Shown here in pieces: positions 14,791 through 26,576 of a stretch of 34,855 nucleotides of DNA. Origin of the DNA: Caldifarciminota bacterium (GTDB taxonomy: Bacteria > Hydrothermota > UBA3073); the NCBI GenBank assembly GCA_023129165.1, contig JAGMCL010000052.1, forward strand, positions 1 to 34,855, given 5' to 3'. Position 1 is the first letter of the stretch; each line of letters begins with the position of its first letter. Below the pieces are notes generated by a model that was not told the origin of the DNA, did no database searches, and saw only the letters and a list, made by a program, of their open reading frames with translations. A program made the translations under genes and the position numbers.

Positions 14791-14973
14791 CTACATTTTC
14801 ACTTTCTTATTCTTTTCTATACGGATCCTTCGGACATATTATTTTTGACAGTACCTTTTATATGTATTATTAAATCATTAAATGCATTGTTTATTATAAC
14901 CTTAAATTCCCCAAAAGTCAAGTGAAAATGATGACCAATAGTTCGTAATTAAAGTTGCTTTGTATAAAAATTC

Positions 14974-15002
14974 TTGCAAAATTAAAAAATTTATGGTATA
15001 AT
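14974..15002 (+). promoter_or_regulatory. Sigma70-type promoter copy 1
   Basis: TTGCAA (14974-14979), 17-nt spacer, TATAAT (14997-15002). Confidence 0.65.
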
Positions 15003-15707: not shown

Positions 15708-15757
15708 TGGTCTGGTTGTTCTTTTTAGGTGTTCGGCTCTTTCTCTCCTATAAAACC

Positions 15758-15786
15758 TTGCAAAAGTAGAAAAATTGTAGTATAAT
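15758..15786 (+). promoter_or_regulatory. Sigma70-type promoter copy 2
   Basis: TTGCAA (15758-15763), 17 nt, TATAAT (15781-15786); similar in spacer sequence to copies 1 and 3. Confidence 0.65.
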
Positions 15787-16130: not shown

Positions 16131-16247
16131 TAAAGGGGCGCCAAAGGGGCAGGAGCCACATGAACCTAAAACGACCTGAACGAACCAAAAATGAGCCAAA
16201 AAATACCTGAAACTTTATGTCCCTAAAAATAAAAAATGTCCCTAAAA

Positions 16248-16360
16248 ATGTCCGAAATCAGTAATCACTGGACAAAACTTATACGGGGCTGGCGATGGGT
16301 GAGTCTACTGCTTATTCTTACTCCCTACTACTTACTATTGACTTCTCACTGCCCTTCTTA
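16248..16360 (+). pseudogene. 5' remnant of a second hsdS gene
   Basis: MSEISNHWTKLIRGWRWVSLL... matches intact hsdS start MSEISNHQTELPGGWRWGKLGEV, with the same upstream ATGTCCCTAAAAA(T)AAAAAATGTCC context. Confidence 0.75.
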
Positions 16361-16388
16361 AGGTAATTTGTTTATTGCCAAAAAAAAC

Positions 16389-16417
16389 TTGCAGAAATAA
16401 GAAAGTTGTGGTATAAT
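16389..16417 (+). promoter_or_regulatory. Sigma70-type promoter copy 3 (hsdR)
   Basis: TTGCAG (16389-16394), 17 nt, TATAAT (16412-16417), 38 bp before hsdR ATG. Confidence 0.75.
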
Positions 16418-16455
16418 GTATAAATTACTCCTAATAAATGATATAATTATCTAAT

Positions 16456-18789
16456 ATGCATCTTAGTGAAGCAGATACAAGAGCGAAACTGATAGACCCT
16501 GCTCTCCATCTCTGTGGATGGACAGAAGACCTTGTAAGACGTGAAGAAACTGAGAGAGGTATTGATATTATAGATGGAAAACCACGCAGAAGAAGAAGGG
16601 GACGAATAGATTATATTCTACGCATTAAAGTTAATATTAACTCACAACCCATCGCAGTTGCTTTAATAGAAGCTAAGAAAAGCGATGACCCACCTGATAA
16701 AGGACTCGAACAAGCAAAGAAGTACGCAAGACTAAATAATGTGCCTTTTGTATATTCTTCCAATGGTCATCTTTTTGTGGAATATAACAACTTTACAGGT
16801 AGAACTTCTCATCCTTATCCTCTAGATAAGTTTCCTACACCATTTGAACTATGTCAGCGTTATGAAAAAGGGATTGGTATTTCACTTAATAAAGAAAATG
16901 CAAAGCCACTTCTTATCCCGTATCCAGGAGGTGAAGCAAGCCGTCGTTATTATCAGGATGCGGCAATTCGTGCTACACTCGAGAAAATTACACAGGGGAA
17001 AAAACGGATGCTTCTATTTCTTGCTACAGGCTCCGGGAAAACCTTCATTGCGGTTCGTCTTTTGAAGAAGATTGCAGATGCAGGGCATTTACATCGTGCT
17101 TTATTTCTTTGCGACAGGGATGAGCTCCGAAATCAGGGACTTTCAGCCTATCAAAATATTTTTGGTGCTGATGCTGCTTCTGTATCTACTGCAAATCCAC
17201 AGAAAAACGCAAGGATTTTAATAGCAACATATCAAACTCTTAATGTAGCAGGCGAGAACGAAGATGCTAAATTCTTACTCGATAACTATCCTGAAAACTA
17301 TTTCAGTCATATAATAATCGATGAATGCCATAGGAGTGCCTGGGGTAAATGGAGTATTGTACTAAAAAGAAATTCTAATGCGATTCAAATAGGACTTACA
17401 GCCACTCCACGTTACTGGGAAGGTGGTAGTAAGGAGGAAAAAAAAGTAGACAAAGAGATAACTGCCAACAACCTTCAATATTTTGGTGAACCAATTTACG
17501 AATACTCAATGTCACAAGGAATTGAAGATGGTTATCTCCCTGCTTGTGAGGTGATAAGACGCGATGTGAACCTCGATATAATAGGTGTTACACGAAATGA
17601 TATTAAAGTATTAGGTGCAAGAGATGCTACAACAGGTAAGCAACTTACACCCGACGAAACCCGTGAGATTTACGAAGCTACATCCTTTGAGGATATTATT
17701 CAATTGCCTGACAGAGTAGAAACAATGTGTAAAGACCTTTTTAAAATGTTCCTTCAAACGGGTGGACCTCACCAGAAGACGGTTATTTTTTGTGTACGTG
17801 ATACCCATGCAGATGCCATTGCCTCTGAAATAAATAATCTTTATGCTGAGTGGTGTTATAGAAATAAGCAAAAAAGATATGAGCCTTATGCATTCAAATG
17901 CACTGCTTCTGTGGGAGGAAGCAAATATATAGCAGATTTACGCGGCTTAGAGCGAAGTCATTTTATCGCTACTACAGTTGATTTAATAACTACAGGAGTT
18001 GATATACCAATATTACGTAATGTAGTATTCTTTAGATATATCCGCTCTCCAATATACTTTCAACAAATGATGGGAAGGGGATCAAGAATTCATCTTCCTA
18101 CAAATAAACTGATGTTTCGGGTTTATGATTATACGGATGCTACAAGACTGTTAGGAGAAGAGTTTAAGTCAAAACCCTCACCCACACGAGAAAAAAAGGA
18201 AACAGAAGAGGGAGAAAAAGAAAAAATAATCCGAGTAGAAGGATTTGATGTTCGAATTAATCCTGCCGGAACTTATATTGTCACTGAAAAAGAAGGAAGA
18301 TTATCGATGGTTACAGTAGAGGAGTACAAGCAGACTATTGCAGAGCACTTGGTTGAAAATGTCAAAACATTAGACGACCTTCGTCACCGATGGATAAATC
18401 CAGAGGAACGGGGAGAGCTTATAGATTCCCTTCCCGAAGACGGACGAGGAATAAGAATGCTGCAGGAACTTCTGAATCGAAAAGAATATGACCTTTATGA
18501 TTTAATGGCAGAAATCGGATTTGGTGTATCTCCTAAAAGTCGTGAGGAAAGAGTTGAAGCTCTTCAATATAAACATGCTGACTGGTTTAAACATTTACCC
18601 TCAGAAACAGCAAAAACATTGTTTGCACTTGCAAGGCAATTTAAAAGGGGGGGTACAGAAGAGTTAGAAAATCCCTATGTATTTGATGCCCCAGATGTTG
18701 TTAAAGCGGGTGGACATCAAGCCTTAAAAGTACTCGGTGAACCAAAAGACATTATTATTGAGATGAAAAGGAGGTTATTTGCAGCCTGA
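16456..18789 (+). CDS. hsdR: Type I restriction endonuclease R subunit (EcoEI-like)
   Basis: 777 aa; nuclease core RIDYIL...AVALIEAKKSDD, Walker A LATGSGKTFIAV, IIIDECHRSAWG, GLTATP, QMMGRGSRIH, EcoEI_R_C-type C-terminus. Confidence 0.96.
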   Translation: MHLSEADTRAKLIDPALHLCGWTEDLVRREETERGIDIIDGKPRRRRRGRIDYILRIKVNINSQPIAVALIEAKKSDDPPDKGLEQAKKYARLNNVPFVYSSNGHLFVEYNNFTGRTSHPYPLDKFPTPFELCQRYEKGIGISLNKENAKPLLIPYPGGEASRRYYQDAAIRATLEKITQGKKRMLLFLATGSGKTFIAVRLLKKIADAGHLHRALFLCDRDELRNQGLSAYQNIFGADAASVSTANPQKNARILIATYQTLNVAGENEDAKFLLDNYPENYFSHIIIDECHRSAWGKWSIVLKRNSNAIQIGLTATPRYWEGGSKEEKKVDKEITANNLQYFGEPIYEYSMSQGIEDGYLPACEVIRRDVNLDIIGVTRNDIKVLGARDATTGKQLTPDETREIYEATSFEDIIQLPDRVETMCKDLFKMFLQTGGPHQKTVIFCVRDTHADAIASEINNLYAEWCYRNKQKRYEPYAFKCTASVGGSKYIADLRGLERSHFIATTVDLITTGVDIPILRNVVFFRYIRSPIYFQQMMGRGSRIHLPTNKLMFRVYDYTDATRLLGEEFKSKPSPTREKKETEEGEKEKIIRVEGFDVRINPAGTYIVTEKEGRLSMVTVEEYKQTIAEHLVENVKTLDDLRHRWINPEERGELIDSLPEDGRGIRMLQELLNRKEYDLYDLMAEIGFGVSPKSREERVEALQYKHADWFKHLPSETAKTLFALARQFKRGGTEELENPYVFDAPDVVKAGGHQALKVLGEPKDIIIEMKRRLFAA

Positions 18790-19690
18790 AAAGGAGACAT
18801 TTAATTTTCTTGTTGAAAATGCAATCTACCCAATGATTAGCAAGAAGGGAAAGGTCTTCTTTAAATATCCGAAGAAAGGAATGTTAACTGAGGCTAAAGC
18901 AAGAGAAATTATTGAACAATTGGATATTAAGACCAGAAACGACTGCAAAAAATTAAGGGAAAAAATCAGAAACCTGAGGTCTGCATTCAGAGAAAATCGT
19001 CCTATAAGCAAATGGATTAAAGAGGAAAGACCAAGGGAGATGCTGGTTATGCATGGTTCCAAATCACTCCCTTTATCAAAGCTTCTTGCAATAATATTAA
19101 GGACAGGAAGGGAAGGAATAAGCGCAGAAGAACTATCAAAAAGGTTATTAAATAAATTTGGTGCATTAAGAAAGATAGATACTGCATCAATTTCTGAAAT
19201 ACGTACAATAGAAGGAATAGGTCTTGCAAAAGCAGCACAAATAAAAGCTGCACTTGAACTTGGTAAAAGGCTGTATAAAGAAACTGCTGTAAGGAAGAGA
19301 AAGATAACAAAACCAGACGAACTTATTGAATATGTTGCAGAATATTACGGTCCCTATTTAAGGGACTCTGTTAAAGAGTTTTTTTATGTCGTACTTCTGG
19401 ATATAAAAAATAAACCTATTGATAACGTGGAAATAAGTAAGGGTAGTATAAATGCAAGTGTGGTAGATCCAAAGGACATTGTAAAAGAAGCAACTATAAG
19501 GTCAGCCTCATCAATAATTTTGGTTCATAATCATCCATCAGGTGAGACAGACCCATCTGAAGAGGATAAAAGATTAACAAAATCAATTATAGACGCCTGT
19601 GAGCTTATTGAGGTAAAAGTATTAGACCATATAATCATTGGAAAAAATCAAGAAGATTATTTTAGTTTTGCAAAGAACGGATTGATATAA
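18779..19690 (+). CDS. RadC-like JAB/MPN protein with N-terminal extension
   Basis: 303 aa, TTG start after AAAGGAGG, overlapping hsdR end; KLLAIILRTGREG, HhH IRTIEGIGLAKAAQIKAALELG, metal site VHNHPSGETDPSEED. Confidence 0.93.
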   Translation: MQPEKETFNFLVENAIYPMISKKGKVFFKYPKKGMLTEAKAREIIEQLDIKTRNDCKKLREKIRNLRSAFRENRPISKWIKEERPREMLVMHGSKSLPLSKLLAIILRTGREGISAEELSKRLLNKFGALRKIDTASISEIRTIEGIGLAKAAQIKAALELGKRLYKETAVRKRKITKPDELIEYVAEYYGPYLRDSVKEFFYVVLLDIKNKPIDNVEISKGSINASVVDPKDIVKEATIRSASSIILVHNHPSGETDPSEEDKRLTKSIIDACELIEVKVLDHIIIGKNQEDYFSFAKNGLI

Positions 19691-19706
19691 TAGAGATTTT
19701 TTTATT

Positions 19707-21182
19707 ATGAAAAAATATAAGATATTTGTAAGCGGTGTTCAAAGAGAGCTTGCAGAAGAGCGACTTGCAGTAAAGGAAGTAATTACTCAAAACGCTCTCC
19801 TCAAAAAATACTTTTCTATCTTTCTTTTTGAAGACCTTCCAGCTAAAAGTAAACCCGCAGAAAATGTCTACCTTGGAAAAGTCTTGGAGAGCGATATCCT
19901 GCTATTGTTATTAGGAAAGGAGTATGGGCAACCTGGTTCTGATGGTCTTTCAGCTATCGAAAGGGAATTTAGAAAGGCTTTAGAGCGGAATTTGAAAATT
20001 CTTGCTTATTTGAGCAAAGAAAGGGATTCTGCTAGAAACAGAAGCCTTAGAAATCTCATAAAAGAGATAAGAAGTTCATGCAGTGGATACATTTATAAAG
20101 AATTCAATGATATTCCTGACTTAAAAGAGTCTGTTTTTAACAGCCTTGTGGAACTCCTGGAGGATGAAGGTATCCTTGCCAAGCTCCCCTTTGATTCTAC
20201 GATTTGCGAAGATACAACTTATGAAGACATAAATGAAAAACTTGTAGAGAACTTTCTGAAGTATAGAGCAATAAAACTAAAAGTGGAAGTTCCTGAGATA
20301 TCCATAAGAGATTTTTTAATAAAGACTATTAAAGCGGTTCGGGAATTAGACGGAGTCTTTAAGCCAACTAATGCAGCGATTTTTTTCTTTTGTAATTACC
20401 CTCAAGAATTTATTTCTCAAAGCAGTGTAAAGGTAGCGAGATACAGGGGAAATACAAGAATAGAATTTATTGATTCCCATGAACTTACTGGTCCATTTTA
20501 TAAAATCCTTGATGATGTAGAAATGTTTTATAAAAGGAACACACGATTAGCCAGTAAGATAGTGGAATTTAAGAGAGTGGATATTCCCGAGTATCCTTTC
20601 GAGGCAATAAGAGAAGGAATAGTCAATGCAATGGCTCACAGAGATTATCTCCGCATTGGCTCTAATATTCAGATGGACATCTTTGACGATAGAATAGAGG
20701 TGACCAGCCCCGGAGGACTTCTTCCAGGGTTGGACATTAAAAATCTGGAAGGGGTTCATGAGACAAGAAACAAAAGGATTTGCAAAATCTTTCACGAAAC
20801 TAAAGATATGGAAAGATATGGGACTGGCATTGTTAAGATGAAGAATTGGATGACAGAACACGGGTTGAAGCCGCCAATAATAACTCAACCAGGCGATTTC
20901 TTCAGAATTACTTTTTATGGTCCTGGCGATAATATTTTAGATTTAGTTCCCAGTATACCTGAAGAAAGGCAAACTGATTTAAAAGAATTGGGTTTAAATG
21001 ACAGACAAATAGAAGCATTAAGATTGATGGTAAATGAAGGGAAAGCCTTAACAAACATAAAATACAGAGAATTGTTTAATGTTAGCAATCAAACATTCGT
21101 TAGAGATATGCGACTACTGTCCAAGTTGGAATTTGTTACTTCCGAAGGTAAAGGTCGGTCTTTGCAATACAAAGCAAAATAA
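19707..21182 (+). CDS. DUF4062 + COG2865-type ATP-binding/HTH protein
   Basis: 491 aa; N-term MKKYKIFVSGVQRELAEERLAVKEVI...VLESDILLLLLGKEYG (DUF4062); C-term FEAIREGIVNAMAHRDY...DRIEVTSPGGLLPG...ERYGTGIVKM (HATPase_c_4) plus winged helix. Confidence 0.88.
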   Translation: MKKYKIFVSGVQRELAEERLAVKEVITQNALLKKYFSIFLFEDLPAKSKPAENVYLGKVLESDILLLLLGKEYGQPGSDGLSAIEREFRKALERNLKILAYLSKERDSARNRSLRNLIKEIRSSCSGYIYKEFNDIPDLKESVFNSLVELLEDEGILAKLPFDSTICEDTTYEDINEKLVENFLKYRAIKLKVEVPEISIRDFLIKTIKAVRELDGVFKPTNAAIFFFCNYPQEFISQSSVKVARYRGNTRIEFIDSHELTGPFYKILDDVEMFYKRNTRLASKIVEFKRVDIPEYPFEAIREGIVNAMAHRDYLRIGSNIQMDIFDDRIEVTSPGGLLPGLDIKNLEGVHETRNKRICKIFHETKDMERYGTGIVKMKNWMTEHGLKPPIITQPGDFFRITFYGPGDNILDLVPSIPEERQTDLKELGLNDRQIEALRLMVNEGKALTNIKYRELFNVSNQTFVRDMRLLSKLEFVTSEGKGRSLQYKAK

Positions 21183-21340
21183 CAATGTCACGAAACAAGT
21201 CCAAATGTCACGAGAATGTCATGAAAAAGTATGTCACGAAAAGTGAGAGAATGTCACGGAATGCGTCACGAAAAAAGTATTCATAAGGGCGGAAAAATAA
21301 CTTACGGAATGTCCCTAAAAAATAAGAAATGTCCGTAATA

Positions 21341-22534
21341 ATGTCCGAAATCAGTAATCATCAAACAGAACTTCCGGGAGGCTGGCGGTGGGGTAAATTG
21401 GGGGAGGTGTGCGATCGGACGAAGAATCGAGATCCAAGAGATAAACCGGAGAAGACTTTCCAATATGTTGACATATCGAGTATTGATAATCGTCTAAAGC
21501 GAATTACAGAGGCCCGGACAATTCTTGGGAAGGATGCACCTAGTCGAGCAAGACAAGTCATCAAGACAAATGATGTTCTTGTAGCTACAACACGCCCGAA
21601 CTTAAATGCAGTTGCACTTGTGCCAAAGAATCTTGATAACGAAATATGTAGTACAGGATTCAGTGTTTTGAGGCCGTCGAAATTTGTTAATCCCTTGTTT
21701 TTGTTTCTCTTTGTTCAGAGTAAATATTTTATTAATATCATATCAGGACAAGTAAGAGGTATGATGTACCCAGCTGTAACCGATGGTCAAGTTCGTAATG
21801 TGTTCTTGCCTCTTCCTTCTCTCTTTGAACAAAAGCGCATCGCTATAAAAATTCAGGAACTGATGCAGGAGGTGGAGCGTGCACGGAATGCTTGCGAAAA
21901 GCAGTTAGAGGCAGCCAAATCCCTCCCTGCCACCTATCTCCGAGAAGTCTTTGAAAGCGAAGAGGCAAAGAAATGGGAAAGGAAGAAGTTGGGGGAGGTG
22001 TGTAAGGTTATTATGGGTCAATCTCCACTGGGACATACTTATAATGCAAAAAGTAAAGGCTTACCATTTTATCAAGGGAAGATCGAGTTTGGTAAAGTGT
22101 ATCTGAAGCCACCTTCAACTTGGTGTACGGAACCTCAAAAGATAGCCGAACCTAATGACATATTAATTTCGGTTAGAGCTCCTGTTGGACCAACTAATAT
22201 GTGTAATATTAATTGCTGTATTGGTCGAGGTCTCGCTACTTTACGACCTAAAAAAAGCATAGAATCATGGTTTGTATTCTATTGCCTTCGCGTTATTGAA
22301 CCAGAAATCTCCAAGATAGGACAAGGATCAACCTTTTCTGCAATCTCTAAATCTCAAATCCAAGATCTTGAAATTCCTATCCCTTCTCTCTCGATTCAGC
22401 AATGCATCGCTTTAGAACTCAAAGAAAAAATGGCAGAGGTGGAGAAACTTTGTAATAGGATTGAAGAACAATTAGAAGCAATAAATGCCTTACCACAAGC
22501 AATTTTAAGGAAAGCATTCAGAGGAGAGTTATAA
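21341..22534 (+). CDS. hsdS: Type I restriction-modification specificity subunit S
   Basis: Track ORF from 21329; ATG at 21341 matches the conserved MSEISNH start. Two TRDs (GWRWGKLGEVC..; WERKKLGEVC..) and two helical repeats (EQKRIAIKIQELMQEVERARNACEKQLEAAKSLP; IQQCIALELKEKMAEVEKLCNRIEEQLEAINALPQAILRKAFRGEL). Confidence 0.95.
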   Translation: MSEISNHQTELPGGWRWGKLGEVCDRTKNRDPRDKPEKTFQYVDISSIDNRLKRITEARTILGKDAPSRARQVIKTNDVLVATTRPNLNAVALVPKNLDNEICSTGFSVLRPSKFVNPLFLFLFVQSKYFINIISGQVRGMMYPAVTDGQVRNVFLPLPSLFEQKRIAIKIQELMQEVERARNACEKQLEAAKSLPATYLREVFESEEAKKWERKKLGEVCKVIMGQSPLGHTYNAKSKGLPFYQGKIEFGKVYLKPPSTWCTEPQKIAEPNDILISVRAPVGPTNMCNINCCIGRGLATLRPKKSIESWFVFYCLRVIEPEISKIGQGSTFSAISKSQIQDLEIPIPSLSIQQCIALELKEKMAEVEKLCNRIEEQLEAINALPQAILRKAFRGEL

Positions 22535-22544
22535 AATTAGCACA

Positions 22545-23216
22545 ATGGATAATAGGTTATATAAGAAATTACTATCGATAGATGTTTTAAAAAGAGCATG
22601 GCAGCTTGTTAGGAATGATGGTCGTGGGAATTTTATTCAATTTTTAATCTTTCTTGTCCTTTTAGGAACTTGTATTTTCGGGATCATAAATGTAAAGCAA
22701 CATAGTAAATACTATCGTAACTCAATTAGACCTTATGTTAAATGTATACCAAGAAGAGGTATAGAGATCAATGATGGATATGTTCGTTATGAGTATTTTA
22801 TAGAAAACAAAGGGAAAACACCGGCATATAAAGTTAAGTCTTATTCTACTCCCACTTCTGAAGAAGTTTTCCCTGTTGATACATTTATTAGGAAAATAAA
22901 AAAAGACCCGGGCCCTCTCAGAAGTATTATATTTCAAGAAGATACAATGTATGGCTCTTCAAATAAAATTCCTACAACATATGGAGACAATAAACCCATC
23001 TCGAGAACTGACATAATACAAAGCATAAAAGAGGGAGAACGAAAACTATATATTCATTTCTACTTTGAATTCATAGATGTTAATGGAAAGCAATATTTCC
23101 TTAGAAGTTCTTATTTACTGACAGATTTCAAGGAATCTAAAGAGATTTGCGATTGTAATTGGGCTATGATAGATGTATCAGAAACCCCAATAATAGTCAA
23201 AAACTCTAATGATTAA
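22545..23216 (+). CDS. Hypothetical membrane-anchored protein within RM operon
   Basis: 223 aa; TM FIQFLIFLVLLGTCIFGII near N-terminus, then predicted beta-rich domain (YVRYEYFIENKGKTPAYKVKSYSTPT); 10 bp after hsdS. Confidence 0.85.
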   Translation: MDNRLYKKLLSIDVLKRAWQLVRNDGRGNFIQFLIFLVLLGTCIFGIINVKQHSKYYRNSIRPYVKCIPRRGIEINDGYVRYEYFIENKGKTPAYKVKSYSTPTSEEVFPVDTFIRKIKKDPGPLRSIIFQEDTMYGSSNKIPTTYGDNKPISRTDIIQSIKEGERKLYIHFYFEFIDVNGKQYFLRSSYLLTDFKESKEICDCNWAMIDVSETPIIVKNSND

Positions 23217-23280
23217 CGAAGAGAATAAATAGAGTTATCCAATACTTAGAAACTCTAAAAATGAGAAGATAGGAGGAGAA

Positions 23281-24789
23281 ATGCCTAAAACCAACTCCCG
23301 CAAAATTACCACCCCGCAATCACTGAATACCTACATAAAGGGTATATGTGATATTATGCGGAGGTCGGGAAGGGCGGGGGCTCTCCAGTATGTGCCTGAA
23401 CTTACCTGGATGCTTTTCCTTCGCATTCTTGATGAAAAAGAGGAAAAAGAAACAGAACATACTAAGGCATTAGGTAGAGAATTTACTCCTTCACTCCAAT
23501 ATCCATATCGCTGGCGAGATTGGGCTGCACCTGATGGAAAGAAAAGAAAAGAGTTACAAGAGGGAACATTCGGAAGATTTATGAGCTTTGTTGATGGTGA
23601 CTTGCTGCCTACCCTCAAAAAATTAAAGGATAAACCTGGTTCAACTCCTCGTCAGAAGGTTGTCAGTCAAGTCTTCTCCTCTTTTGAGAAAACGGGTATT
23701 GATACCGAACGCAATCTTTTAGATATACTTGATAAAATTCATGAACTCTCCCTGGAGCAAGTTGAAGAAACCCACATGTTCACACTCTCCCAGGTCTATG
23801 AGGGACTGATACAGAAAATGGGTGAGAAAAACAACGACGGTGGACAGTTTTTTACACCAAGAGAGGTTATTCGTGTTATGGTTAAAGTGATTGACCCGAA
23901 GATTGGAGAAACCGTTTATGACCCCTGCTGTGGAACGGGTGGGTTTCTGGCTCAGGCATATCTACATATGAATAAAAATGCAACAATAGCAGATGACATT
24001 GAAACCCTCAAGATTAGAACCTTCTACGGTAGAGAGAAAGAAAATCTTGTTTACCCCATTGTCCTTGCAAATCTCGTGCTTCATGAGATAGATGAACCAC
24101 ATATATGGCATGGCAACACGCTAACAGGTCATGAGGTTTATGGTGGACTTTTCCAGGGTGCACCCGTCCTCTTTGATTTAGTGCTTACTAATCCTCCATT
24201 TGGTGGTAAAGAGGGAAAAGATGCTCGGACTCATTTCGCCTATAAAACCAGCTCAACACAGGTATTATTTTTACAGCATGTTATTGACAACCTTAAAAAT
24301 GGTGGTAGATGTGGTATTGTAATGGATGAAGGTGTTTTATTCCGAACAAACGAAAAAGCCTTTGTTCAGACCAAACGCAAACTCCTAAGTGAGTGCAACC
24401 TCTATTGTATTGTAAGTCTCCCTCCCAAGGTATTCCTTAATGCTGGTGCTATGAGTAAAACTAATCTTCTATTTTTTGTCAAAGGCGAATCCACTAAAGA
24501 AATATGGTATTATGACCTGTCTGATTTAAATGTAACAAAAAGGCAGCCCTTAACTATGCATCAATTTGAGGAGTTCTTTAAATTACTACCAGAAAGAAAA
24601 GAAAGTGAGCACTCCTGGAAGGTTCCAATAGAAGAAATAGAAGAGAAAAATTACGATATTAAAGCAGTTAATCCAAATAGAAAGATTGAAGAAGATACAC
24701 GAACACCAGAGGAATTAATTACACTTATTGAATCGGAACAAAAAGAAATTCTAAAAGCATTGGAAAAATTGAAAAATAAAGGTTTGTGA
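23281..24789 (+). CDS. hsdM: Type I restriction-modification methyltransferase M subunit
   Basis: 502 aa; GGQFFTPREVIRVMV, YDPCCGTGGFLAQAY, DLVLTNPPFGGKEG, preceded by AGGAGG. Confidence 0.97.
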   Translation: MPKTNSRKITTPQSLNTYIKGICDIMRRSGRAGALQYVPELTWMLFLRILDEKEEKETEHTKALGREFTPSLQYPYRWRDWAAPDGKKRKELQEGTFGRFMSFVDGDLLPTLKKLKDKPGSTPRQKVVSQVFSSFEKTGIDTERNLLDILDKIHELSLEQVEETHMFTLSQVYEGLIQKMGEKNNDGGQFFTPREVIRVMVKVIDPKIGETVYDPCCGTGGFLAQAYLHMNKNATIADDIETLKIRTFYGREKENLVYPIVLANLVLHEIDEPHIWHGNTLTGHEVYGGLFQGAPVLFDLVLTNPPFGGKEGKDARTHFAYKTSSTQVLFLQHVIDNLKNGGRCGIVMDEGVLFRTNEKAFVQTKRKLLSECNLYCIVSLPPKVFLNAGAMSKTNLLFFVKGESTKEIWYYDLSDLNVTKRQPLTMHQFEEFFKLLPERKESEHSWKVPIEEIEEKNYDIKAVNPNRKIEEDTRTPEELITLIESEQKEILKALEKLKNKGL

Positions 24790-25436: not shown

Positions 25437-26576
25437 ATGAGATCAGGAAGACACATCCAGCAACTACAAGGAGACTTGTCTTATCTGGCATTTATGCCGA
25501 ACTTTTTGCCACCAAAGCCTCCAATTAAGATAGATAAGGTAATGTTAGACTTGCTTTCTAAAGCCGATAGATTCATAGGACGATTAGATATGATAACTGA
25601 AGTATTACCAGACCCTGATTTTTTTATATTTATGTATATTAGAAAAGAAGCCACATCCTCAAGTCAGGTAGAAGGAACACAAGCCACTTTTGCTGATGTC
25701 TTGAAAGTTGAGGCTAACATTAAAGATCCAGCAATTCCTGATGATGTCCAGGAAATATTGAATTATATCGAAGCAATGAACTATGGCATTAAGAGACTTG
25801 GGAGTTTGCCATTGTCCTTACGTTTGATTAGAGAAATCCACCAACTCCTTTTACAAGGAGTCCGCGGAAAATATAAGAACCCCGGTGAGTTTAGGAAAAG
25901 TCAAAATTGGGTTGGTGGTAGAACAATAAATACGGCGAGTTATGTCCCACCTCCAGTATCAGAATTACCACTACTTTTAGATAACCTTGAGAAATTTTTC
26001 TATGATAAATCACCAATGCCAATTTTAATAAAAACTGCCTTAATTCATTCTCAATTTGAGTTAATTCATCCCTTTTTAGATGGCAATGGTAGAGTAGGTA
26101 GGTTACTTATTACTTTTTATCTTTGTCAACAGGAGATATTACAAAGACCATTACTCTATCTTTCTGATTACTTTAAAAGATATAGAAGTGAATACTATGA
26201 TAAACTAAGTACAATTCATAAAAAGGATAATTTGGAAGATTGGATTAAGTTTTTCTTGGATGGAGTGATAGAAATTTCAAAAGAGGCTGTTAATCTATCA
26301 CGGAAGATAGTTAATTTAAGAGAACAAGATGTGAAAAAAGTCTCCAACCTGGGAAAATCAATCAAAAGTGCTTTATCCCTTTTAGAATCGCTTTACAAAT
26401 CACCAATTATTACCGTAAAATCAGTCGAAAAAGCTACAGGATTATCTCCTTCTAATGCCAACGCTTTGGTTGAAAAATTTGGAAATTTGGAAATACTAGA
26501 GAAGGTCGGAGAAAGGAAACGAAATAGGAGATTCGTTTATAAGAAATATTTGAATTTATTTGAAATAAGTCCTTAA
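25437..26576 (+). CDS. Fic family protein (putative AMP transferase)
   Basis: 379 aa; HPFLDGNGRVGRLL catalytic motif, SSSQVEGTQAT inhibitory-helix-like SxxxEG motif, C-terminal HTH (SVEKATGLSPSNANALVEKF). Confidence 0.95.
   Translation: MRSGRHIQQLQGDLSYLAFMPNFLPPKPPIKIDKVMLDLLSKADRFIGRLDMITEVLPDPDFFIFMYIRKEATSSSQVEGTQATFADVLKVEANIKDPAIPDDVQEILNYIEAMNYGIKRLGSLPLSLRLIREIHQLLLQGVRGKYKNPGEFRKSQNWVGGRTINTASYVPPPVSELPLLLDNLEKFFYDKSPMPILIKTALIHSQFELIHPFLDGNGRVGRLLITFYLCQQEILQRPLLYLSDYFKRYRSEYYDKLSTIHKKDNLEDWIKFFLDGVIEISKEAVNLSRKIVNLREQDVKKVSNLGKSIKSALSLLESLYKSPIITVKSVEKATGLSPSNANALVEKFGNLEILEKVGERKRNRRFVYKKYLNLFEISP

What the first reader, a model, noticed from the sequence alone, without database searches (positions are those of the whole stretch)
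16456..24789. Expanded type I RM operon: hsdR-radC-DUF4062/HTH-hsdS-TM protein-hsdM
Three non-canonical genes are embedded among hsdR, S and M on one strand, with overlaps or short gaps (hsdR/radC overlap 11 nt; radC/DUF4062 16 nt; hsdS/TM protein 10 nt). The added parts (JAB/MPN metalloprotein, DUF4062 sensor-like plus ATPase/HTH regulator, membrane-anchored protein) could make a regulated or abortive-type RM defence. This is the best candidate for an undescribed composite system in the window.
Basis: partly seen in the sequence, partly recalled or inferred. Interest (0 to 1): 0.75.

Follow-up and report, generated by a model that had tools for sequence, protein, structure and literature searches.

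The report
Restriction operon carrying swappable defence cargo
A bacterial DNA-cutting defence operon (type I restriction-modification) carries extra genes in two exchangeable slots; one extra is a probable NAD-destroying cell-suicide enzyme, and its gene is followed by short repeats that look like its own DNA docking sites, a feature I found no description of.

Summary
The six genes are real. They are not a fixed six-part machine. In a 147-genome phylum survey (WOR-3 relatives) the hsdR-hsdS-hsdM chassis is conserved, with cargo slots between R and S and between S and M. hsdR-radC-DUF4062 is co-inherited in three species; six close hsdR relatives lack that pair. Slot 2 changes every time: 223-aa membrane protein here, complete Gabija, OLD nuclease, PDC-S19, Panacea plus STAND, or Fic elsewhere. 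So this is 'embedded defence' in a type I RM operon, a known kind.

The DUF4062 protein is a TIR-like NADase candidate: its profile matches Swarozyc KpSwz, and E85 aligns with catalytic E97 (PMC13174449). DUF4062 sits on the HATPase_c_4-wHTH body that elsewhere carries Schlafen AlbA_2.

New observation: genes of this family often end in an array of gene-specific ~9-nt direct repeats spaced 9, 11 or 20 bp (window 21185-21273). Arrays occur at 59/115 3' ends versus 34/300 controls and 12/108 5' ends. Among close homologues the unit changes with the wHTH recognition helix. A held-out sample was weak (8/28). Docking or autoregulation is inferred.

The parts
16456..18789 (+). hsdR, EcoAI-like type I restriction subunit
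   Evidence: ResIII, SWI2_SNF2, EcoEI_R_C, HSDR_N; PADLOC REase_I 8.7e-95; NF046051 480.7 bits, below its 550 cut-off
16389..16417 (+). probable hsdR promoter (TTGCAG, 17 nt, TATAAT); one of three copies of a 38-nt repeat (14965, 15749, 16380)
   Evidence: repeat family D2; L008 has a similar sequence upstream of hsdR; promoter hits as a whole are no more frequent than in shuffles
18779..19690 (+). RadC-family JAMM protein with ~75-aa N-terminal extension; slot 1 cargo
   Evidence: RadC 6.8e-40, UPF0758_N 1.7e-20; HNHPSG...PS..D motif invariant in 9 RadCs; 2qlc match
19707..21182 (+). DUF4062(TIR-like NADase)-HATPase_c_4-wHTH protein; slot 1 cargo
   Evidence: DUF4062 4.4e-16, HATPase_c_4 4e-24; KpSwz match 2.4e-11, E85 aligned to E97; model with TIR-like beta-alpha topology, mean pLDDT 79.5
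21185..21273 (+). array of six direct repeats, unit TGTCACGAAA, starting at +3,+23,+34,+49,+69,+81 after the DUF4062 stop
   Evidence: more repeats than all dinucleotide shuffles; the spaced repeat pair occurs once in the 3-Mb genome
21309..21352 (+). second repeat array (ATGTCCCTAAAA, ATGTCCGTAATA, ATGTCCGAAATC; spacing 20, 12) overlapping the hsdS start codons
   Evidence: sequence; unit like the array of the homologue L169
21329..22534 (+). hsdS specificity subunit, two target-recognition domains
   Evidence: Methylase_S, 2 stretches; only 39% identical to the L005 allele while hsdR and hsdM are 94-97%
22545..23216 (+). 223-aa protein, one N-terminal TM helix plus predicted beta-sandwich; slot 2 cargo, unknown function
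   Evidence: no Pfam/PADLOC/NCBIfam match; model H28-60 then strands, pLDDT 65; rare relatives not beside RM genes
23281..24789 (+). hsdM, N6-adenine methyltransferase
   Evidence: N6_Mtase 3.4e-64, HsdM_N
16225..16299 (+). 75-nt remnant of an hsdS 5' end upstream of hsdR, 81% identical to 21318-21392
   Evidence: family D1; similar hsdS remnants in L005 and L008
15885..16130 (+). 81-aa remnant of a second HATPase-wHTH gene (wHTH end only)
   Evidence: matches residues 440-490 of the DUF4062-protein profile, 78 bits
15301..15753 (+). ORF6N-domain gene, apparently truncated; flanking cargo
   Evidence: ORF6N 3.9e-36; PADLOC PDC-S05 4e-48
25437..26576 (+). SoFic-like Fic adenylyltransferase downstream of hsdM; flanking cargo
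   Evidence: PADLOC SoFic 2.6e-118; Fic_N, Fic

Best explanation
An EcoAI-like type I RM operon serves as a chassis with two cargo slots. HsdRSM cuts unmethylated incoming DNA (inferred from homology). Slot 1 holds RadC and a one-protein abortive module: a DUF4062 (TIR-like NADase) effector on a HATPase_c_4 switch and a winged-helix domain. Proposed mechanism: the wHTH binds the repeat array directly after its own gene, which anchors the protein and may control its own level or the downstream hsdS-TM-hsdM genes. An infection cue acting through the ATPase domain then lets the TIR-like domains assemble and deplete NAD+, killing the infected cell if restriction fails. Slot 2 holds interchangeable cargo, here a membrane-anchored protein. 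Shown: gene content, chassis and slot turnover, catalytic Glu, arrays and their spacing. Inferred: NADase activity, the trigger, wHTH-array binding, and the role of RadC and of the TM protein.
For: Chassis and cargo: (Gabija, OLD, PDC-S19, Panacea/STAND and Fic in slot 2 of orthologous operons). Window versus L005 stays alignable through hsdR-radC-DUF4062 (93%) and again from 12 nt inside hsdM, with everything between the hsdS 3' end and hsdM replaced. NADase: profile match to KpSwz 2.4e-11, E85 invariant in ten homologues and aligned to E97, TIR-like topology, plus published experiments on KpSwz (PMC13174449). Same body with AlbA_2 instead of DUF4062 in slot 1 of G117 and beside radC-hsdR in G146; such Schlafen-HATPase-wHTH proteins are BREX-linked backup effectors (PMC12839542). 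Arrays: 59/115 versus 34/300 and 12/108, 11-bp spacing 71% versus 5%; DUF4062 subgroup 14/17; unit follows wHTH among close homologues, 12/12 versus 13/49, Mantel 0/1000.
Against: No activity was measured. The KpSwz match stops at about residue 177, so its portal-binding AUX domain is not shared and the trigger is unknown. wHTH and array are adjacent DNA and could be swapped together without binding each other; among distant pairs recognition-helix similarity did not predict shared units significantly (Fisher 0.08, permutation 667/2000). A held-out phylum gave arrays in 8/28 genes versus 5/27 5' ends. The RadC role is unknown.
Confidence: 0.55

Rival explanations
1. A single integrated six-component system: RadC, DUF4062 protein and TM protein are working parts of the RM enzyme complex or its regulated variant.
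For: Tight spacing on one strand; radC and DUF4062 co-inherited with hsdR in three species under purifying selection.
Against: Orthologous operons keep other cargo or none; the TM gene is in no sibling operon; slot 2 can hold a complete stand-alone system such as Gabija.
Confidence: 0.12
2. The DUF4062 protein is mainly a transcriptional regulator of the operon, with DUF4062 as a sensor and no killing activity; the array is its operator for hsdS-TM-hsdM, balancing modification against restriction.
For: The array lies in the largest gap of the operon, just before hsdS; a wHTH is present; RM operons with dedicated repressors are known (PMC12255303).
Against: The catalytic Glu is invariant and DUF4062 is an experimentally shown NADase family (PMC13174449). 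Similar arrays follow AlbA_2-type genes outside RM operons, and orthologous operons without the gene have no array before hsdS.
Confidence: 0.2
3. The repeats are an RNA element (for example an RNA antitoxin as in type III toxin-antitoxin loci, or a translation control element) rather than protein docking sites on DNA.
For: Arrays sit in the 3' untranslated region next to a possible toxin; repeat-RNA antitoxins exist (general knowledge).
Against: Units are ~9 nt with 9/11/20-bp spacing, near one and two DNA turns; the unit tracks the wHTH among close homologues.
Confidence: 0.13

Closest known systems
Embedded defence genes in type I RM ('guilt by embedding', Payne et al. 2024 preprint as cited in PMC12255303 and PMC12988326; DarTG2 in the EPEC RM island, PMC12255303)
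   Same: Stand-alone defence genes lie between hsd genes of an RM operon; the site is proposed to act as a recombination hotspot.
   Different: R-S-M order with two slots, WOR-3-type hosts, and RadC plus DUF4062-HATPase-wHTH as cargo.
Swarozyc (KpSwz), DUF4062 NADase, PDB 10wc/11cq/11cv, PMC13174449
   Same: DUF4062 domain with the catalytic Glu, followed by a winged-helix-containing part; phage defence by NAD+ depletion is the likely output.
   Different: The match ends at about residue 177; a HATPase_c_4 module lies between effector and wHTH; the trigger may differ; embedded in an RM operon; 3' repeat array.
Schlafen AlbA_2-HATPase-wHTH effectors (PMC12839542; DIP2311, PDB 3lmm)
   Same: Same HATPase_c_4 and wHTH body, same place in an RM operon in G117; many carry 3' arrays.
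   Different: RNase-type AlbA_2 is replaced by the DUF4062 NADase domain.
EcoAI/FtnUII-type type I RM
   Same: HsdR, HsdM and HsdS domain content.
   Different: HsdR scores below the NF046051 equivalog cut-off; gene order R-S-M with cargo.

Membership tests
Type I restriction-modification | HsdR translocase-nuclease, HsdM N6-MTase and two-domain HsdS together | tested here: met
   HSDR_N barely over its cut-off (25.6 vs 25.1)
Type I restriction-modification | Site-specific methylation and cutting | not testable with these tools
   needs a methylome and plating assays
EcoAI/FtnUII HsdR equivalog (NF046051) | score over the curated cut-off of 550 bits | tested here: not met
   480.7 bits; called EcoAI-like only
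Embedded defence in type I RM | cargo inside the hsd operon, replaced by known defence systems in orthologous operons | tested here: met
Swarozyc / DUF4062 NADase | DUF4062 TIR-like domain | tested here: met
   59.3 bits vs 24.7 cut-off; KpSwz profile match 2.4e-11
Swarozyc / DUF4062 NADase | catalytic Glu (KpSwz E97) | tested here: met
   E85 aligned to chain position 82, taken as E97, and invariant in 10 sequences
Swarozyc / DUF4062 NADase | portal-binding AUX domain | tested here: not met
   match ends at residue 177; HATPase_c_4 follows instead
Swarozyc / DUF4062 NADase | NAD+ hydrolysis and abortive infection | not testable with these tools
   needs expression, NAD+ and phage assays
Schlafen AlbA_2-HATPase-wHTH effectors | AlbA_2 effector domain | tested here: not met
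   no SLFN_AlbA_2 match; DUF4062 in its place
Schlafen AlbA_2-HATPase-wHTH effectors | HATPase_c_4 plus C-terminal wHTH body | tested here: met
   DIP2311 3lmm best fold and profile match
RadC / JAMM | RadC domain with HxH...S..D metal motif | tested here: met
RadC / JAMM | enzymatic activity or repair role | not testable with these tools
   needs biochemistry or a deletion

The most novel reading that the evidence does not exclude
The DUF4062- or Schlafen-HATPase-wHTH effectors include a self-addressed class of abortive-infection proteins: each gene carries at its 3' end a private array of short direct repeats (9/11/20-bp phased) that its own winged helix recognises, and recognition helix and repeat unit evolve together as a swappable cassette. 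Loss or masking of the docking DNA, or competition for it, could be part of how infection is sensed.
Probability: 0.4. Interest if true: 0.75.

Novelty: new variant of a known kind. Interest (0 to 1): 0.58.

Why it matters
It shows a type I RM operon working as a cargo carrier in an uncultured lineage, with a complete Gabija in the same slot of a sibling operon. It places the recently described DUF4062 NADase on the Schlafen-type ATPase-wHTH body. The 3' repeat arrays give a cheap, directly testable handle on how a large, poorly understood effector family is regulated, and possibly a recognition code between wHTH and repeat unit.

Tried and rejected
Fixed six-gene system: rejected because of cargo turnover. 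TM protein as RM component: relatives are rare and not next to RM genes. hsdR chassis in Omnitrophota: no match at 1e-100 in 237 genomes, though the tool warns that an empty answer proves little. Repeats as a property of hsdS: orthologous hsdS genes without the DUF4062 gene have none upstream. Repeats as an AT-rich artefact: composition-preserving shuffles, 5' ends and control genes do not show them at this rate. Universal wHTH code across distant homologues: not significant. Replication in the phylum of G151 (Elusimicrobia): weak. Legionella plasmid DUF4062-HATPase proteins: no RM neighbours. Payne 2024 and the bacterial Schlafen preprint are not held, so novelty of the arrays is judged only against the papers searched.

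Full report
Observation. The window lies on contig C102 of a 3.0-Mb, 153-contig genome, probably a candidate division WOR-3 relative: the nearest named relatives are WOR-3 MAGs, L005 at 87% and L006 at 73% identity of the DUF4062 protein. The surroundings are ordinary chromosome (uvrB, trehalose genes, S49 peptidase, PEPCK).

Chassis and cargo. I searched 147 genomes of the phylum with the DUF4062 protein, RadC and HsdR, fetched the neighbourhoods and annotated them with iterated profiles. Orthologous hsdR genes (56-97% identity) sit in an R-S-M order. Slot 1 (R to S) holds radC-DUF4062 in G000, G143 and G072; AlbA_2-HATPase-wHTH in G117; a 23S-IVP-family protein in G012 and G110; a 285-aa protein in G107; nothing in G070 and G109. 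Slot 2 (S to M) holds the 223-aa TM protein here, 355 aa in G143, GajA+GajB (Gabija) in G072, an OLD nuclease in G109, DUF3644/PDC-S19 in G107, Panacea-type gene + PDC-S60-like + STAND in G012, Fic in G110 and a 199-aa protein in G070. In G117 the contig ends inside hsdS, so its slot 2 is unknown. Neither radC-DUF4062 nor the TM gene is therefore a required part of the RM system.

Traces of turnover. Window and L005 align at 93% from 16381 to 21392 (hsdR, radC, DUF4062 and the first codons of hsdS). Within hsdS only two islands align, at 80-82%, and alignment resumes at 93% 12 nt inside hsdM. A 75-nt hsdS start is duplicated upstream of hsdR (16225-16299 versus 21318-21392, 81%), and hsdS-start remnants follow the DUF4062 gene in L005 and L008. 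The 81-aa ORF at 15885 matches the wHTH end of the HATPase-wHTH family and looks like a lost gene. The TIR-like part of the DUF4062 gene has dS 0.75 versus 0.27 in the rest and 0.15 in hsdR, which suggests recombination of the effector half.

DUF4062 protein. A ten-sequence alignment gave an AlphaFold model with a five-strand alternating beta-alpha N-terminal domain (mean pLDDT 79.5). The same profile hits KpSwz (10wc) at 2.4e-11 over residues 2-177 and DIP2311 (3lmm) over the HATPase part. E85 aligns with the Glu at KpSwz chain position 82; taking the chain to begin at residue 16 (the paper uses a 16-C construct) this is E97, the catalytic residue (PMC13174449). Fold search finds 3lmm first and, weakly, nucleoside deoxyribosyltransferases and the SARM1 TIR domain. 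I therefore read DUF4062 as effector, HATPase_c_4 as switch, and wHTH as DNA-binding part.

Repeat arrays. The 146-nt gap after the DUF4062 gene contains six copies of TGTCACGAAA at +3, +23, +34, +49, +69 and +81; the spaced repeat pair occurs only here in the genome. Across 115 non-redundant HATPase_c_4 genes from the window's phylum, the phylum of G147 and a few plasmids, 59 3' ends beat 100 of 100 dinucleotide shuffles, against 12/108 5' ends of the same genes and 34/300 control 3' ends. Among array genes, 71% have a 9-mer pair 11 bp apart (controls 5%) and 58% one 20 bp apart (controls 7%). By effector class: DUF4062 14/17, AlbA_2 36/67, neither 9/31. In DUF4062 homologues the scaffold of positions is largely kept while the unit changes: VSNQTFVRD goes with TGTCAYGAAA in the window, L005, L006, L007 and L009; VANKTAATD with TTACACGAT in L163, whose HATPase part is 88% identical to L007. 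Among close pairs, those with nearly the same recognition helix share a unit in 12/12 cases, those with a different helix in 13/49; a partial Mantel test gives 0/1000 permutations. Limits: wHTH and array are contiguous and can be swapped as one piece; the partial correlation is not confined to the recognition helix; distant pairs show no significant code; a held-out set from the phylum of G151 is weak, 8/28 versus 5/27, although one gene there (L243) has nearly the same scaffold at +2, +22, +34, +49, +69, +81 with another unit. Pairs of genes are also not independent of each other.

RadC. The metal motif HNHPSG...PS..D is invariant in nine sequences. The ~75-aa N-terminal extension is shared with RadCs outside RM loci in G099, G100, G101 and G103, so the extension is not RM-specific. 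RadC or a RadC fragment lies within 5 kb of an hsdR-like gene in seven genomes: G000, G143, G072, G146, G136, G134 and G093. From the density of RadC hits I would expect about 0.2 by chance (rough estimate, my arithmetic). Its role is open; RadC genes are mentioned in antirestriction modules of mobile elements (PMC12458937), so a restriction-moderating role is a possibility I cannot test.

TM protein. One helix and a beta-sandwich in a low-confidence model (pLDDT 65); a handful of alignable relatives, none with RM genes alongside; a copy split over two frames lies on contig C133 of the same genome. It is best treated as slot-2 cargo of unknown function.

Verdict. New variant of a known kind: an embedded-defence type I RM operon carrying an NADase candidate on a Schlafen-type body. 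The repeat arrays are the part I could not find described; the novelty search covered only the held open-access library.

Noticed in passing
L092:15144-19042 (G072): Complete Gabija system (GajA 688 aa, GajB 611 aa) lies exactly between hsdS and hsdM of the orthologous operon.
   Followed up: yes
L005 after 17809: A Fic-like gene is followed by repeats of the type ACTGTGACATTT, so 3' arrays may extend to other wHTH-bearing proteins; the window's own Fic gene shows none by eye.
   Followed up: no
window 14965-15002, 15749-15786, 16380-16417: Three copies of a 38-nt promoter-like element (CTTGCA...TATAAT); one lies just upstream of hsdR.
   Followed up: partly
window 21309-21352: The two possible hsdS start codons (ATGTCC) are themselves units of a repeat array like that of another DUF4062 homologue, as if a former occupant's array became the hsdS start.
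   Followed up: partly
window 19707-20171: The TIR-like part of the DUF4062 gene has about three times the silent divergence of the rest of the gene against L005, suggesting effector-domain recombination.
   Followed up: partly
L008:4153-10097 (G145): ORF6N, two different DUF4062-HATPase genes with different arrays, an hsdS remnant and hsdR in a row: successive cargo acquisitions preserved side by side.
   Followed up: partly
L235:8254-8849 (G000 contig C133): Paralogue of the 223-aa TM protein split over two reading frames, away from RM genes.
   Followed up: partly
L221 (G136:C2): Another type I RM locus with a RadC gene, a RadC fragment and Fic upstream of hsdR; RadC recurs near RM loci.
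   Followed up: partly
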